Under the pieces are notes generated by a model. That model made no database searches. It worked only from the letters and a program-made list of their open reading frames with translations, and had not been told where the DNA came from. Shown here piece after piece: positions 34,353 to 39,326 of a stretch of DNA of 64,000 bases (the first letter of the stretch is position 1; every line of letters starts with the position of its first letter). The stretch comes from Actinokineospora terrae (GTDB taxonomy: Bacteria > Actinomycetota > Actinomycetes > Mycobacteriales > Pseudonocardiaceae), in the NCBI RefSeq assembly GCF_900111175.1, contig NZ_FOGI01000007.1:248001-312000 (forward strand), read 5' to 3'. The translations under genes and the position numbers were made by a program.

Positions 34353-35245
34353 CTGCTGTCCACTCCCACCGCGTCACGGTACAACTCGGCCAGCGACGGG
34401 TGCTGGTGGGTGAAGCCGCGCACCGGGCCGGTGGCCAGCGCCGCGGCCAGGATCGGCTGGTCGTCGGTGCCCGGGGCGACGCGCAGCCTGGTCTGTCCGT
34501 TGTGGACCCCCAACACGGTGACCCCGGCCAGTCCCGCCGCCCACCCGGCCGGGGCGGCAGGCGCGTCGACGACCAGCGTGCTGCCGCTGCCCGCCCGCAG
34601 CTGCGCGACCGTGCCACCGGCCACCACCCGGCCGCCCTTGATGATCCCGACCCGGTCGCAGAGCCGCTCGACCAGGTCGAGCTGGTGGCTGGAGAACACC
34701 ACCGGCACCCCGGCCGCGGCCTGCTCGCGCAGCACCTCGACGAGCACGTCGACGGCCAGCGGGTCCAGCCCGGAGAACGGTTCGTCGAGCACCAGCAGCA
34801 GCGGGTCGTGCACCAGCGCCGCCGCCAGCTGCACCCGTTGCTGGTTGCCCAGGCTCAGCCGCTGCACCTCGGTGTCGCGGTGCTCGCGCAGCCCCAACCG
34901 GGCGACCCACTGTTCAGCGGCCCGGTGTGCGGCGTTCGTGTCCGCGCCGTGCAGTTCGGCGAGGTAGACCAGCTGGTCGAGCACCCGCATCCGCGGGTAG
35001 AGGCCGCGCTCCTCGGGCAGGTAGCCGAACCGGCGGCGCGCCGCGTGGTCGACCGGGGCGCCGCGGAAGCGGACCTCGCCCGCATCGGGTGCCAACACGC
35101 CCAGCACGATGCGCATCGTGGTCGTCTTACCCGCACCGTTGCCGCCGACGAAGCCGAACAGCTCACCCGCGCCGACGTCGAAGGACACCCGGTCGCAGGC
35201 CAGCACGTCGCCGTAGCGCTTGGTGACCCCGTCGACCCGGAGCAT
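34349..35245 (-). CDS. ABC transporter ATPase, NatA-like
   Basis: 298-residue ATPase with Walker A GGNGAGKTTTMR, the block YLPEERGLYPRMRVLDQL, signature LSLGNQQRVQLAAAL, Walker B LLLVLDEPFSGLDP and switch FSSHQLDLVE. The LSxGNxQ signature is characteristic of NatA/YhaQ-type exporters. The ATG at 35245 has GGGAGG upstream. It is coupled to the permease gene by 4 bp and divergent from the type VII cargo operon. Confidence 0.9.
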   Translation of the reverse strand: MLRVDGVTKRYGDVLACDRVSFDVGAGELFGFVGGNGAGKTTTMRIVLGVLAPDAGEVRFRGAPVDHAARRRFGYLPEERGLYPRMRVLDQLVYLAELHGADTNAAHRAAEQWVARLGLREHRDTEVQRLSLGNQQRVQLAAALVHDPLLLVLDEPFSGLDPLAVDVLVEVLREQAAAGVPVVFSSHQLDLVERLCDRVGIIKGGRVVAGGTVAQLRAGSGSTLVVDAPAAPAGWAAGLAGVTVLGVHNGQTRLRVAPGTDDQPILAAALATGPVRGFTHQHPSLAELYRDAVGVDSR

Positions 35246-35415
35246 CGCCCACCTCCCGGCCCCCAGTATCCCGGGTCGGCGGCCGCCGGTTACCCGCCGG
35301 TCCGGTGCGCCTGCAAACGAGTTGGCCGATTGGCACCCGGCGCGGAACCGAACGCGCGATGCTCCGTCCAACGACAGGCGGATGCTCCAGGCAGGACCAG
35401 GGAAGTGGTGTGGCG

Positions 35416-35847
35416 ATGAACCCTGAACAGTGGCTCGCGCAGTACGACGAGACGCTGCAACGGACCGCGGCGAGCGCGCAGAAGGCGGAGAAGGCGCTGC
35501 GCGAGGTGGGGGGCAGCGCGACATCGGCCGACGGCGACGTCACCGTCCGGGTGTCGGCTGCCGGGGTCACCACCGACCTGGTGCTGCGGCCGAGCGTGCG
35601 CGAACTGGAGCCGGAGCAGCTGGCCAGGGTGATCCTCGAGGTCACCAGGCAGGCCCAGCGGGACGCGGGCGCCAGGGTCGTCGCGGCGATGGAGGACCTG
35701 GTCGGCGACTCGGCGGCGCTGGACGTGGTCAAGTCCTTCCTGCCGCAGGGCTACGCCGGTGACGCCGCGGACGGTCCCGCGGCCAAGCCGCGCGAGCGGC
35801 GCTCCGACGACGACTACTTCGACAACCCCCCCGAAGTCGTGCACTAG
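35416..35847 (+). CDS. YbaB/EbfC-family protein in a type VII cargo operon
   Basis: 143-residue YbaB/EbfC-like protein. The family forms small DNA-binding or chaperone-like dimers, and in actinobacteria members are often encoded next to ESX substrates. The N-terminal helix MNPEQWLAQYDETLQRTAAS is followed by a beta region (GDVTVRVSAAGVTTDLVLRP), a helix (EPEQLARVILEVTRQAQRD) and an acidic disordered tail. Start ATG 35416 gives normal length; upstream in-frame codons are not conserved-looking. The next gene starts 17 nt downstream. Its role as specific partner of the secreted proteins is inference. Confidence 0.8.
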   Translation: MNPEQWLAQYDETLQRTAASAQKAEKALREVGGSATSADGDVTVRVSAAGVTTDLVLRPSVRELEPEQLARVILEVTRQAQRDAGARVVAAMEDLVGDSAALDVVKSFLPQGYAGDAADGPAAKPRERRSDDDYFDNPPEVVH

Positions 35848-35864
35848 ACCTCAAGGCGGATTCC

Positions 35865-36164
35865 ATGGGTACAGGGTTCAACGTCAACGTGGCGGAGATG
35901 CGGGCGCACGCCGGTACCGTCGCGACCTGCGCCGCGCAGGTGCAGTCGGCGACCGGGGCGACGCAGTCGATCTCGAACGCCGCGTACGGGGTGATCGGCC
36001 AGTTCTTCGCCACCGCGATCATGGCCGCCTGCGGGGACGTCCTGCAGGGCATCCAGAAGGTGGCGACCGCGATCGACGACGTCCGCAAGGGGCTAGAGGA
36101 CGTCGCGCGCGACTACGAGCGCATCGACATGGGCAACGCGGCGACTTTCGGCGGGAGGCTGTAA
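35865..36164 (+). CDS. Type VII secretion target, EspC-like
   Basis: 99-residue all-helical protein of the ESX-secreted EspC/DUF2580 class. The first helix NVNVAEMRAHAGTVATCAAQV and last helix VATAIDDVRKGLEDVARDYERID form the expected hairpin. The C-terminal YERID fits the YxxxD/E secretion motif that follows the second helix in such substrates. It is encoded directly before (0-nt gap) the larger WXG-type cargo, suggesting co-secretion as partners. Confidence 0.82.
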   Translation: MGTGFNVNVAEMRAHAGTVATCAAQVQSATGATQSISNAAYGVIGQFFATAIMAACGDVLQGIQKVATAIDDVRKGLEDVARDYERIDMGNAATFGGRL

Positions 36165-37730
36165 GTGACCACGACCACCACGACGGCTGGGCAGTCCACC
36201 GGCGGGCAGGCCGCCACGGCGCTCAACAACGACATCAAGGGCGCCAAGTCGGCCATCGAGCGGGGTGACTGGCTCGACGCGGGCCTGCAGATCACCAACG
36301 TCGCGATGGACGTCATCAACATCGCGGGCGACCCGCTCGGCGCCTGCGCCAGCGCCGGGTTCGGCTGGATCATCAACCACATCAAGTTCCTCAAGGAGCC
36401 CTTCGACAAGCTCCTGGGGGACGCGGGCTCGATCATCAACAGCGCGCAGGGCTGGGTGAAGGCGGGCGACCAGCTGATCTCCTCCGCGCAGAAGTACCGC
36501 GAGGCGGTGCGCACCCAGACCAACAACTGGCACGGCTCCGCCGGTGACGCCTACCGCCGCGCCGCCGCGACCCAGGCCGAGGGCCTCGACGCGCTGGCGC
36601 AGGTCAGCAAGGGTGTCGGCCAGGCGATCGACGGCGCGGGCAAGCTGCTGGCCGAGGTGCGCAAGGCCGTGCTGGACTTCATCAACCAGTGCGTGCAGAA
36701 GGTCATCCAGATCATCATCGAGGCGCTGGCCAAGGCGTGGCTGAGCTTCGGCGCCAGCATCGCCGAGGGCATCGCCCGCTCGGTCGTGCAGGCGGTGCAG
36801 ACCGCGCAGAAGATCCTCAGCAAGGTGCAGAAGTTCGTCTCCTCGCTGCAGAAGATCATGCAGACGGTGCAGAAGATCGTCGCGCTGGCCAAGGCCGTCA
36901 AGCAGCTGCTGGCGACCATCGGCGGCAAGGCGAACACCTCGCCGAGCGCGAGCACCACCCAGGCGCCGACGGTCAACACCGGCACCCTGGACACCGCCTC
37001 CGGCGCGCACTACACCAACCCGAACGGCAGCACGAACACCGCCAACTACGGGCAGAACCAGATCCCTGGCTACGGCGGGTACCAGCCGCTGCCCGGTTCG
37101 ACGACCAATGCGGCGAACTACGGCCAGGGCCAGGTCCCCGGCTACGGCGGCTACCAGCAGCCCGCCGGGCGGCCGACCGGTCAGCCCACCTACGGCCAGT
37201 CGACCAACGTCCCCGGCTACGGCGGGTACCAGCAACTCCCCGGCGGTGCGCAGCGCCCGCCCGGCACGTACACCCCCGGCGCGCTGCCCGGTCAGACCAC
37301 CGAGGTGAAGCCGCCCAACGGCTGGGGCCCCAGCGGCCCGCCGCCCACCACCGGTGCCCCGGCGCCGCTGGTGGACCGGGCCCGCTGGATCGGCGCGGCG
37401 GTCGAGGTCCTGATCAACCACGGGGTGGACCCCGCCAAGATCAACCCCGAGCAGATCGCGCAGATCGTCGACCGGACCTCCGGCGGCAACCCGCACGCGG
37501 TCAACCTGCAGGACCCCAACGCCGCCAACGGGTTCCCGCCCAAGGGCATCTGCCAGCTGCCGGACCCGGTGTTCGACCAGCACAAGGTCCCCGGCTACGA
37601 GGACATCTGGCAGCCGGTGGACAACATGCTGGCCGGGATCAAGTACTTCCTGGCCGAGTGGGGCTCGCTGCTCAACGCGCTGCAGGGTGCCCTCGGGCAG
37701 CCGAGCGCGCCGGTGATCACCCCGCAGTAG
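36165..37730 (+). CDS. Type VII cargo: WXG-type protein with degenerate SLT domain
   Basis: 521 residues. The N-terminal ~130 residues are helical with a WHGSAGDAYRRAA motif, matching the WXG100 turn. A long amphipathic, glutamine/lysine-rich helical region (about 150-260) follows. A repetitive linker then contains three copies of a VPGYGGYQ-like unit spaced about 25-30 residues. The C-terminal ~100 residues (ARWIGAAVEVLINHGV onward) align with lytic-transglycosylase SLT domains: SGGNPHAVNLQDPNAANG, GICQLPDPVF, PGYEDIWQPVDNMLAGIKY. The catalytic glutamate of the RESGGNP motif is replaced by threonine (DRTSGGNP), so murein cleavage is unlikely. Probably a secreted cell-wall-binding protein or inactive relative. 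Starts at GTG 36165, directly after its EspC-like partner. Confidence 0.85.
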   Translation: MTTTTTTAGQSTGGQAATALNNDIKGAKSAIERGDWLDAGLQITNVAMDVINIAGDPLGACASAGFGWIINHIKFLKEPFDKLLGDAGSIINSAQGWVKAGDQLISSAQKYREAVRTQTNNWHGSAGDAYRRAAATQAEGLDALAQVSKGVGQAIDGAGKLLAEVRKAVLDFINQCVQKVIQIIIEALAKAWLSFGASIAEGIARSVVQAVQTAQKILSKVQKFVSSLQKIMQTVQKIVALAKAVKQLLATIGGKANTSPSASTTQAPTVNTGTLDTASGAHYTNPNGSTNTANYGQNQIPGYGGYQPLPGSTTNAANYGQGQVPGYGGYQQPAGRPTGQPTYGQSTNVPGYGGYQQLPGGAQRPPGTYTPGALPGQTTEVKPPNGWGPSGPPPTTGAPAPLVDRARWIGAAVEVLINHGVDPAKINPEQIAQIVDRTSGGNPHAVNLQDPNAANGFPPKGICQLPDPVFDQHKVPGYEDIWQPVDNMLAGIKYFLAEWGSLLNALQGALGQPSAPVITPQ

Positions 37731-37743
37731 TACCCCCGTGGAC

Positions 37744-37779
37744 GAACCGCCGCCGCCCGTGCCCGGGCGGCGGCGGTTC
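37744..37779. terminator. Strong bidirectional terminator
   Basis: A 16-bp GC-rich stem (GAACCGCCGCCGCCCG with its complement) followed by TTT on the + strand, 14 nt after the cargo operon and 6 nt before the glpD stop. Confidence 0.8.
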
Positions 37780-37784
37780 TTTCG

Positions 37785-39326
37785 TCAGGGGGTGAGGAGT
37801 CCGCGCAGGGCGCGGTCGACCAGGTCGGTCACGACGGGCCGCGCGGCGTCGGTGTCCTGTCGCACCAAGCCGATGCGGGTGCGCCGGTGCAGGACGTCGT
37901 CGGCGTCGAGGGCGCCCTCGTGGCGGACCGCCCAGATGACCTCGGCCGCGGTGACCCCGGCGGCGACGGGCCTGCCGAGGTCCGGGTCGAGCAGGCCCAT
38001 CGCGGCCACCGTGGGGGATTCGGTGCCGTAGCGGGCGATCAGGCGGCGTGGAGCGTCCAATGTGGCCAGTCGGGTGCGCGGGGCGGCGCCGACCAGGGGC
38101 AGGGTGCGGGTGCGGGAGGGGCCAGCGGACAGGCCCGCGAGGTCGATGGCCCGGTCGACGGCGTCGGCGGCCATCCGGCGGTAGGTGGTGAGCTTGCCGC
38201 CGACCACGGTGACGACCTTGTCCTCGGTGAGCACCGCGTGGTGGCGGGACAGGTCGGCGCTGCGGCCCGCCGCGCTGGGCAGGTCGACCAGCGGGCGCAG
38301 CCCGGCGAACGAGCCGAGGACGTCGTCTCGGGTCAGCCTGCTCTCCAGCACGGACGAGGCGACGTCGAGCAGGAAGTCCACATCGGACTCGGGAACCGCG
38401 GGCACGTCGGGGATCTCGTCGACGGGTTCGTCGGTCAGTCCGATGTAGACACGGCCGTCGTCCTGCGGCAGCACCAGCGCGAACCGGCCGAACGCGCCCG
38501 GGATCGGCACCGTCAGCGACGTCGCCCCGCAGCCGACCGCGGCCGCGTCGACCACCAGGTGCGACCCGCGCGAGGGCCGCAGCCGCACCGAGGGGACGAG
38601 CGTGCCCGCCCACACCCCGGTCGCGTTCACCACGACCCGGGACCGCACCAGGACTTGCTTGCCGGTCAGCCCGTCGACCACCTCGACCGAGTCCGGCGCC
38701 ACGCCGGTCACCCTGGCCCTGGTGATGATCCGCGCGCCAAGGCCCGCTGCCGTGCGGGCGAGTGCGACGACCAGGCGGGCGTCGTCGGTGAGCTGGCCGT
38801 CGAACGAGAGCAGGCCGCCGCGCAGCCCGGCGGCGCGCAACCCGGGTGCCAGGGCACGCGCCTCGGCCGCGGAGACCCGGCGCGGGCTCGGCAGCAGGTC
38901 GGTGCGGGTGCGGGTGGCGCGGCGCAGGCCGTCCCCGGCGACCAGGCCGGTGTAGGCCAGCGCGGCGTCGCGGCCGGAGACCGGCGGGTGCAGCGGGATG
39001 AGCTGGGGGAGCGTGCGGGTCAGGTGCGGCGCGGTGGTGGTCATCAGGACGCCGCGCTCCACGGCGCTCTCGTGCGCCAGCCCGACATCGCCCTTGGCCA
39101 GGTAGCGCAGGCCGCCGTGCACGAGCTTGCTCGACCAGCGGGAGGTGCCGAAGGCCAGGTCCTCGGCCTCGACCAGGGCGACCGACAGGCCGCGGGCGGC
39201 CGCGTCGAGCGCGACCCCGGCCCCGGTGACCCCGCCGCCGATGACCAGGACGTCGACGACCTCGCCCGCGGTGATGGCGGCCAGGTCGGCGGCTCGGCGT
39301 TCGGCGTTCAGCGCGGTCGTGCTCAT
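37785..39326 (-). CDS. glpD: Glycerol-3-phosphate dehydrogenase
   Basis: 513-residue flavoprotein oxidising glycerol-3-phosphate to dihydroxyacetone phosphate at the membrane. The Rossmann FAD motif VDVLVIGGGVTGAGVALDAA is near residue 24. The family motif FGTSRWSSKLVHGGLRYL follows, and VVGGKLTTYRRMAADAVD closes the FAD domain, then a helical C-terminal domain. ATG 39326 overlaps the tetR stop by 4 bp, so the regulator and enzyme are co-transcribed, with the TetR first. The C-terminus is slightly short of the longest homologues but complete. Confidence 0.92.
   Translation of the reverse strand: MSTTALNAERRAADLAAITAGEVVDVLVIGGGVTGAGVALDAAARGLSVALVEAEDLAFGTSRWSSKLVHGGLRYLAKGDVGLAHESAVERGVLMTTTAPHLTRTLPQLIPLHPPVSGRDAALAYTGLVAGDGLRRATRTRTDLLPSPRRVSAAEARALAPGLRAAGLRGGLLSFDGQLTDDARLVVALARTAAGLGARIITRARVTGVAPDSVEVVDGLTGKQVLVRSRVVVNATGVWAGTLVPSVRLRPSRGSHLVVDAAAVGCGATSLTVPIPGAFGRFALVLPQDDGRVYIGLTDEPVDEIPDVPAVPESDVDFLLDVASSVLESRLTRDDVLGSFAGLRPLVDLPSAAGRSADLSRHHAVLTEDKVVTVVGGKLTTYRRMAADAVDRAIDLAGLSAGPSRTRTLPLVGAAPRTRLATLDAPRRLIARYGTESPTVAAMGLLDPDLGRPVAAGVTAAEVIWAVRHEGALDADDVLHRRTRIGLVRQDTDAARPVVTDLVDRALRGLLTP

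What the first reader, a model, noticed from the sequence alone, without database searches (positions are those of the whole stretch)
36165..37730. Type VII cargo ending in a lytic-transglycosylase fold without its catalytic glutamate
The C-terminal domain matches actinobacterial SLT domains along SGGNPHAVN, PNAANG, KGICQLPDPVF, PGYEDIW and DNMLAGIKY, but the universally required glutamate of RESGGNP is threonine. Preceding it are a WXG-type helical domain and a GYGGYQ repeat linker, and the gene is in a three-gene operon with an EspC-like partner and a YbaB-like protein. A secreted pseudoenzyme could bind murein or serve as a structural or signalling factor.
Basis: partly seen in the sequence, partly recalled or inferred. 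Interest (0 to 1): 0.6.

Follow-up and report, generated by a model that had tools for sequence, protein, structure and literature searches.

The report
Exported cell-wall enzyme without its blade
A soil-bacterium genus keeps, in every species checked, a probably exported protein whose end looks like a cell-wall-cutting enzyme but lacks the amino acid that does the cutting, so it most likely grips the wall instead of cutting it.

Summary
The C-terminal domain of window 36165-37730 (+) has a lytic-transglycosylase (SLT) fold (AlphaFold mean pLDDT 89.4; best VIA-align match MltF, Z 9.6). The catalytic Glu position is Thr438. In 16 of 16 Actinokineospora genomes the orthologue has no Glu or Asp there (Thr 9, Ala 4, Asn, Gln, Leu 1 each), though DR and SGGNPH on either side are invariant. 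All 66 distinct sampled relatives and all 80 viral relatives kept have Glu. Other residues fixed in those forms are lost too, while the domain evolves about as slowly as the N-terminal domain. It is a conserved pseudoenzyme, not an error.

This suggests a cell-wall cargo whose enzyme became a binding module. Export, binding and inactivity are inferred, not measured. A Glu-bearing paralogue is missing or broken in 3 of 16 genomes, so the pseudoenzyme is the better retained.

The parts
35416..35847 (+). YbaB/EbfC-domain protein, 143 aa; EspL-like chaperone candidate
   Evidence: PF02575 46.3 bits over cut-off; present in 12 of 12 named loci
35865..36164 (+). EspC-like small partner, 99 aa
   Evidence: PF10824 39.5 bits over cut-off 23.5; present in 12 of 12 named loci
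36114..36128 (+). YxxxD (YERID) type VII signal motif near the C-terminus of the EspC-like partner
   Evidence: YxxxD in 13 of 13 sequences aligned (window plus 12 named); motif as described in PMC6319747 (passages)
36165..37730 (+). cargo gene, 521 aa, GTG start directly after the stop of the EspC-like gene
   Evidence: orthologues in 16 of 16 genus genomes
36222..36938 (+). N-terminal helical WXG100_2/PPE/EspA-like domain (about residues 20-258); most hydrophobic stretch within residues 177-201 (best 19-residue mean 1.38)
   Evidence: WXG100_2 26.1 bits, just under cut-off; 13 of 13 members match it at E<=0.01; hydropathy
36528..36536 (+). W-x-G motif (W122-H-G124)
   Evidence: W and G invariant in the 13-member alignment
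36939..37370 (+). low-complexity linker with GYGGYQ repeats, ending with GPSGPPP and a short spacer
   Evidence: sequence; dN 3 to 6 times that of the SLT-like and N-terminal domains in the three nearest window pairs
37371..37700 (+). SLT-like (GH23) pseudoenzyme domain, residues 403-512
   Evidence: AlphaFold pLDDT 89.4 for residues 397-521; VIA-align MltF Z 9.6, Slt70 Z 9.2; alignments
37476..37478 (+). Thr438 at the catalytic Glu position
   Evidence: 0 of 16 orthologues have E or D; 66 of 66 sampled relatives have E

Best explanation
This is a type VII (ESX) cargo whose C-terminal lytic-transglycosylase domain lost catalysis in the ancestor of Actinokineospora and was kept as a binding module. 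Proposed path: the YbaB/EspL-like protein stabilises the pair in the cytosol (by analogy with EspL); the EspC-like partner, carrying YxxxD, and the cargo, carrying W-x-G, leave as a heterodimer through one of the genome's ESX machines; the helical, partly hydrophobic N-terminal domain stays in or near the envelope; the flexible linker lets the SLT-like tip reach the glycan strands and hold them without cutting, as a wall anchor or spacer. Shown here: orthology, loss of Glu, predicted fold, constraint on the domain, operon, and wall-enzyme tips at the corresponding locus of two other genera. Inferred: inactivity, export, murein binding and the physiological role.
For: 0 of 16 genus orthologues have E/D at the site, while the flanking DR and SGGNPH are invariant. 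A Glu-bearing relative aligns with MltE so that its E falls on residue 64 of chain 3t36 (E 0.042); PDB titles call MltE E64Q (6ghy) and Slt E503Q (6fc4) inactive, and 4hjy is titled MltE-E64Q with bound chitopentaose. Fold. Other losses: N447 kept in 6 of 16, D450 in 9 of 16, Ser at 459 in 1 of 16; tail Y-x-GY in 0 of 16 against 66 of 66; changes are denser in residues 438-469 (11 of 18 against 5 of 20, Fisher p 0.027, range chosen after looking). dN of the dead domain is close to that of the N-terminal domain and about a quarter of the linker's. Trio in 12 of 12 named loci, YxxxD in 13 of 13, two EccC loci. Tips elsewhere: M15 peptidase in 6 of 6 genomes of genus g48, Glu-bearing SLT in the one genome of g56.
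Against: No measurement of export, binding or activity. Loss of several residues fixed in the Glu-bearing forms could mean that glycan binding decayed too. The cargo itself falls below the Pfam cut-offs for WXG100_2, PPE and EspA_EspE. Of 59 trio cargos fetched, 52 show neither of the two wall-acting domains (other domains were not looked for in 51 of these), so the tip may be an add-on. The full-length model is unusable (pLDDT 38.3). No Foldseek match of the domain reached E<=0.001.
Confidence: 0.5

Rival explanations
1. The dead SLT domain became a protein-binding module, for example for a wall enzyme, a surface partner or the ESX machine, and no longer touches glycan.
For: 16 columns are invariant in the orthologues but variable in Glu-bearing relatives, and 4 switched residue (I>V, S>P, I>M, Y>W); positions of the GLMQ and D-S-N-A motifs are eroded.
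Against: Several residues shared with Glu-bearing forms are kept (S439, N442, D486, N487 in 16 of 16, Q464 in 14 of 16); tips at the corresponding locus of two other genera are wall enzymes.
Confidence: 0.25
2. The domain still cleaves murein with a migrated acid, such as the invariant D436 or D450.
For: D436 is invariant in the 16 orthologues and is Q 38, E 24, D 3, K 1 in the 66 Glu-bearing relatives; D450 is kept in 9 of 16.
Confidence: 0.07
3. It is a regulator or decoy for the Glu-bearing WXG100-SLT paralogue of the same genome.
For: The paralogue is a type VII-type cargo with a Glu-bearing SLT, near EspG and PPE genes.
Against: The paralogue has no match in 2 of 16 genomes and is broken in 1, whereas the pseudoenzyme is in 16 of 16.
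Confidence: 0.08
4. It is an antibacterial effector tip that lost toxicity and is now drifting.
For: Exchange of C-terminal domains resembles polymorphic effectors; the E column varies freely (7 changes on the tree, the E/non-E split included).
Against: dN/dS 0.10 to 0.19 for the domain among the four closest orthologues and 75% mean column identity over the genus. Immunity genes were not searched for.
Confidence: 0.07

Closest known systems
GH23 lytic transglycosylases of the SLT type (MltE, MltF, Slt70; Pfam PF01464)
   Same: Predicted fold, ESGGNP-like motif except E, Q of the GLMQ motif in 14 of 16 orthologues, PVDN-x-x-AG helix
   Different: No catalytic Glu; window protein below the Pfam cut-off; the C-terminal Tyr tail of its nearest Glu-bearing relatives is lost
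WXG100-SLT type VII-type cargo of Pseudonocardiaceae (L002 in the own genome)
   Same: Helical export-type domain, low-complexity linker with G-x-SG-x-PP, SLT tip
   Different: Keeps Glu and tail; sits near EspG and PPE genes, not with YbaB-like and EspC-like genes
Mycobacterial EspA/EspC and EspE/EspF with EspL
   Same: EspC-like partner with YxxxD, YbaB-domain protein in the operon, helical large partner
   Different: SLT-like tip added; orthology to EspL not tested; EspD- or EspH-like genes not searched for
EssH, wall hydrolase of staphylococcal T7SSb
   Same: Link between type VII secretion and the cell wall
   Different: CHAP amidase/endopeptidase, active, exported by Sec (PMC13059805, passages)
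Lysozyme-fold pseudoenzymes (alpha-lactalbumin, sperm SLLP1)
   Same: Lysozyme fold reused without the original catalysis (function recalled; lactose synthase 1nf5 and SLLP1 4yf2 are fold matches)
   Different: Animal C-type family, unrelated context

Membership tests
GH23/SLT lytic transglycosylase (active enzyme) | Catalytic Glu | tested here: not met
   T438; 0 of 16 orthologues E/D
GH23/SLT lytic transglycosylase (active enzyme) | Lysozyme/LT fold | tested here: met
   Predicted: pLDDT 89.4; MltF Z 9.6 (rmsd 3.0, 102 aligned), Slt70 Z 9.2 (rmsd 2.4, 86 aligned), nearly all 50 listed rows LTs or lysozymes (the tool warns that such Z values can be common for helical models); Foldseek gave no match at E<=0.001
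GH23/SLT lytic transglycosylase (active enzyme) | Pfam PF01464 over gathering cut-off | tested here: not met
   17.4 against 21.3 bits for the window protein; other members: 8 of 13 at E<=0.01, cut-offs not shown
GH23/SLT lytic transglycosylase (active enzyme) | Cleavage of murein to anhydro-muropeptides | not testable with these tools
   needs protein
Glu-bearing WXG100-SLT cargo subfamily | C-terminal PG...Y-x-GY tail | tested here: not met
   0 of 16 orthologues against 66 of 66
EspA/EspC-type type VII substrate pair | EspC family small partner with YxxxD/E | tested here: met
   PF10824 39.5 bits; YxxxD 13 of 13
EspA/EspC-type type VII substrate pair | Large partner in the EspA_EspE/PPE/WXG100_2 families | tested here: inconclusive
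   16.0, 22.1 and 26.1 bits, all below cut-offs; 13 of 13 members match WXG100_2 at E<=0.01, 11 of 13 EspA_EspE, 9 of 13 PPE
EspA/EspC-type type VII substrate pair | ESX machinery in the genome | tested here: met
   two EccCa matches over cut-off on other contigs
EspA/EspC-type type VII substrate pair | ESX-dependent export | not testable with these tools
   needs mutant secretome
EspL-like chaperone | YbaB-type domain, adjacent to an EspC/EspE-type pair | tested here: met
   PF02575 46.3 bits over cut-off; the NCBIfam YbaB equivalog is not reached (11.8 against 49.45)
EspL-like chaperone | Orthology to mycobacterial EspL | not tested
   no EspL sequence was compared

The most novel reading that the evidence does not exclude
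The YbaB-EspC-cargo locus of Pseudonocardiaceae is a type VII carrier with exchangeable tips, wall-acting in some genera (M15 D,D-peptidase, lytic transglycosylase) and otherwise in others: a dedicated ESX route for cell-wall remodelling proteins. In Actinokineospora the blade was converted to a conserved, non-cutting murein clamp that the genus keeps even where its Glu-bearing type VII transglycosylase is gone.
Probability: 0.4. Interest if true: 0.65.

Novelty: new variant of a known kind. Interest (0 to 1): 0.5.

Why it matters
How ESX cargo relates to the thick wall of non-mycobacterial actinobacteria is largely open. A natural set of corresponding cargos whose tips are a peptidase, a transglycosylase, a dead transglycosylase or something else lets that question be tested by comparison: do these operons work on the wall, and does binding suffice? 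It is also a clean bacterial case of a lytic-transglycosylase fold kept by selection after loss of its catalytic acid.

Tried and rejected
Sequencing error or a private mutation: rejected, 16 of 16 genomes lack Glu. A migrated acid: in the compared columns the newly invariant acids are D436 and E414; E414 is 24 residues away in sequence and D436 seems badly placed; not fully excluded. The same dead domain outside the genus: none seen in 390 family genomes (after the 16 the scores drop from 205.3 to 115.5 bits), but that call scored only 11 candidates per genome and listed part of its matches. A weak trace: the cargo of genome G023 (L234) ends in a stretch that matches the first helices of the domain at 8.0 bits, E 0.003 among 20 sequences, and stops before the Glu position; below threshold and not followed.

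Solved-structure search by sequence gave no relative for the dead domain (the one row is an ankyrin-repeat chance match) and none for the profile of the Glu-bearing forms; single-sequence phmmer gave MltE at E about 0.04. For the N-terminal part the rows are mostly designed or repetitive helical proteins at E 0.0019 or worse, taken as chance. The full-length model is useless. Placing the Glu-bearing SLT of genome G261 with the dead clade is allowed but not shown (p-AU 0.571, likelihood higher when held together); its nearest rows on the free tree are Glu-bearing ones. dN/dS of more distant pairs is 0.32 to 0.51 for the domain and up to 1.36 for the linker; dS is probably depressed by GC3 of 0.94-0.98, so only the comparison between regions was used. 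No sigma-70-like promoter or terminator was found in 35200-37860, which says little in an actinobacterium. Literature (searches; open-licence PMC only): no title or abstract listed there describes a type VII cargo with a dead SLT domain. PMC10098051 and PMC10211241 were opened by passages and do not bear on it.

The GlpD query was translated in a wrong frame through my coordinates; its matches are not used. A first Fisher test used miscounted numbers (11 of 19 and 5 of 19); one search replaces it.

Full report
WHAT IS THERE. The window is contig C6, 248001-312000, of a 7.59 Mb genome. The gene 36165-37730 (+) starts with GTG directly after the stop of the EspC-like gene 35865-36164, which follows the YbaB-like gene 35416-35847. 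The 521-aa product has a helical N-terminal part (WXG100_2 26.1 bits, PPE 22.1, both under cut-off), a repeat linker, and residues 425-495 that match Pfam SLT at 17.4 bits, below the 21.3 cut-off.

THE GLUTAMATE. Orthologues, 59-89% identical by blastp, exist in 16 of 16 genomes of the genus, the window's included. In the alignment of the domain (16 rows, mean column identity 75%) the catalytic column holds Thr 9, Ala 4, Asn 1, Gln 1, Leu 1; D-R before it and SGGNPH after it are invariant. I compared them with 66 distinct Glu-bearing relatives: those brought in automatically (29 loci) plus 40 that I picked for variety of genera from the list, 69 in all before identical ones were dropped. This is a sample of the matches; all are from the family except L030, from the order. 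One Glu-bearing copy split by an insertion (L073), one broken copy (L074) and the NlpC/P60-SLT protein L001 are not among them. All 66 have Glu. So do 80 of 80 viral relatives, the best 80 of 589, chosen by similarity to Glu-bearing queries. The 16 form one clade with 99% SH-aLRT against 33 of the 66 and with 100/100 support against a fuller set.

CATALYTIC IDENTITY OF THE POSITION. The Glu-bearing paralogue of the own genome aligns to E. coli MltE with ESGGNPNA against ESGGNPNA; its Glu falls on residue 64 of the 203-residue chain 3t36 (E 0.042). PDB titles name MltE E64Q (6ghy) and Pseudomonas Slt E503Q (6fc4) as inactive. The AlphaFold model of residues 397-521, made with 12 genus orthologues and 32 of the 48 distinct viral relatives, has mean pLDDT 89.4 and pTM 0.83; a helix ends exactly at the Thr (model residue 42). 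Foldseek lists mostly lytic transglycosylases and lysozymes, none at E<=0.001. VIA-align gives MltF Z 9.6 (rmsd 3.0, 102 aligned), Slt Z 9.3, Slt70 Z 9.2 (rmsd 2.4, 86 aligned) and MltC Z 8.9; the tool warns that such values can be common for helical models, but nearly all 50 rows shown are of this superfamily.

WHAT ELSE CHANGED. Of 38 columns that are at least 97% one residue in the 66 relatives, 22 are kept, 12 are lost or variable and 4 have switched in the orthologues. Lost or eroded: the Glu, N447 (6 of 16 kept), D450 (9 of 16), N452 (10 of 16), the LM of GLMQ (5 of 16 each), Y494 (12 of 16). Switched: among others Ser to Pro at 459 and Tyr to Trp at 499. Changes are denser in 438-469 (11 of 18) than elsewhere (5 of 20), Fisher p 0.027, with the range chosen after looking. 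The C-terminal PG...Y-x-GY tail is in 66 of 66 relatives and in 0 of 16 orthologues. Sixteen other columns are newly invariant. So the active site is dismantled, but the fold and a partly new surface are held. In the three nearest pairs with the window, dN of the domain is 0.035-0.038, of the N-terminal domain 0.023-0.038, and of the linker 0.125-0.171.

THE OPERON. YbaB-like, EspC-like and cargo genes stand together in 12 of 12 named loci, with the ABC ATPase gene upstream in 11 of 12. The EspC-like protein has YxxxD in 13 of 13, which with W-x-G on the partner fits the bipartite type VII signal described in PMC6319747 (passages read). That paper reports that EspL, with a predicted YbaB-type domain, stabilises EspE, EspF and EspH, which is why I read the YbaB protein as a chaperone. 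Two EccC genes over cut-off lie on other contigs, so no EccC lies on the window's contig above that cut-off and the trio looks like an orphan substrate locus.

TIP EXCHANGE. YbaB homologues at E<=1e-28 occur in 97 of 386 family genomes, 14 of 46 genera. I fetched 60 loci: 59 around such YbaB matches and one (L257) around a cargo match. A cargo homologue was recognised in 59 of 60 (not in L244); one is cut by a contig end (L250) and four belong to second-type trios of Actinokineospora itself (L238-L240, L257). In the first 20 loci the ABC gene is found in 13 and the TetR gene in 15, so many correspond in position to the window's locus. Cargo C-termini: the first-type loci of all six genomes of genus g48 carry an M15 D-Ala-D-Ala peptidase domain (PF13539 41.6 and 47.6 bits in the two scanned; motifs in six). 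One, L225 of genus g56, carries an SLT with Glu and tail, 38.0 bits. The other 52 show neither (SLT by profile, M15 by motif; one of them, L228, was also scanned with Pfam); 28 of the 59 carry a tail with an H-x-R-K-like motif. Before the SLT, L225 has WGPSGPPP as the window protein does. Holding L225 with the dead clade raises the likelihood and is not rejected (p-AU 0.571), but the data are few and its nearest rows on the free tree are Glu-bearing ones.

THE GLU-BEARING PARALOGUE. A WXG100-SLT cargo with Glu (SLT 45.9 bits, WXG100 46.9) is encoded in the own genome near EspG and PPE genes. In the genus, 13 of 16 genomes have it, one of them split by an intein-like insertion; one has a broken remnant and two have no match at E<=0.001. 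The dead version is in all 16.

HOW IT PROBABLY WORKS. Best reading: an ESX-exported, wall-binding pseudoenzyme. Supported steps are Glu loss, predicted fold, constraint, operon and wall-enzyme tips at the corresponding locus of two other genera; that a Glu-less transglycosylase can still hold glycan rests on the title of 4hjy (MltE-E64Q with bound chitopentaose). Inferred steps are export, wall binding, inactivity and the role as anchor or spacer. A protein-binding role is the strongest rival.

CONTEXT IN PRINT. PMC13059805 (passages read) describes EssH, an active wall hydrolase needed for type VIIb secretion and itself exported by Sec. Searches listed nothing on type VII cargo with dead SLT domains; tip exchange at this locus was not itself a search term. 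The library holds open-licence papers only.

Noticed in passing
L073 (G014, contig 1 near 1485665-1487032), minus strand: The Glu-bearing WXG100-SLT cargo of one Actinokineospora genome is interrupted between NNWD and SNAAKG by about 357 residues that begin with Cys (CLTTDAMILTRRGW), contain ILGWIAGDGH and end in LTGN before Ser: it looks like an intein with a homing-endonuclease part, in a protein predicted to be secreted (not scanned against family models).
   Followed up: partly
L074 (G008, C61:60871-61014): Broken remnant of the Glu-bearing paralogue with a stop codon, while the pseudoenzyme gene of that genome reads through.
   Followed up: partly
L227-L229, L233, L235, L258-L275 and second-type loci L238-L242: Trio cargos of several genera end in a conserved tail (DHQRKVR-x-EG...PKAAKPVIGE or a looser form), 28 of 59, mostly after a Gly-rich stretch; the PPE-family gene near the Glu-bearing paralogue (L217:7627-8871) ends similarly (EEHVRKYGI...VIAPVLGE). 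Function unknown.
   Followed up: partly
L218-L223: Trio cargo with an apparently intact M15 peptidase tip in all six genomes of genus g48.
   Followed up: partly
L238, L239, L240, L257: Four Actinokineospora genomes have a second, diverged trio-like locus (YbaB 32-48% identical to the window's) whose cargo has no SLT domain by profile.
   Followed up: no
L234 (G023), end of the cargo: The cargo ends in a short stretch resembling the first helices of the SLT-like domain (8.0 bits, E 0.003) and stops before the Glu position; possibly a truncated relative.
   Followed up: no
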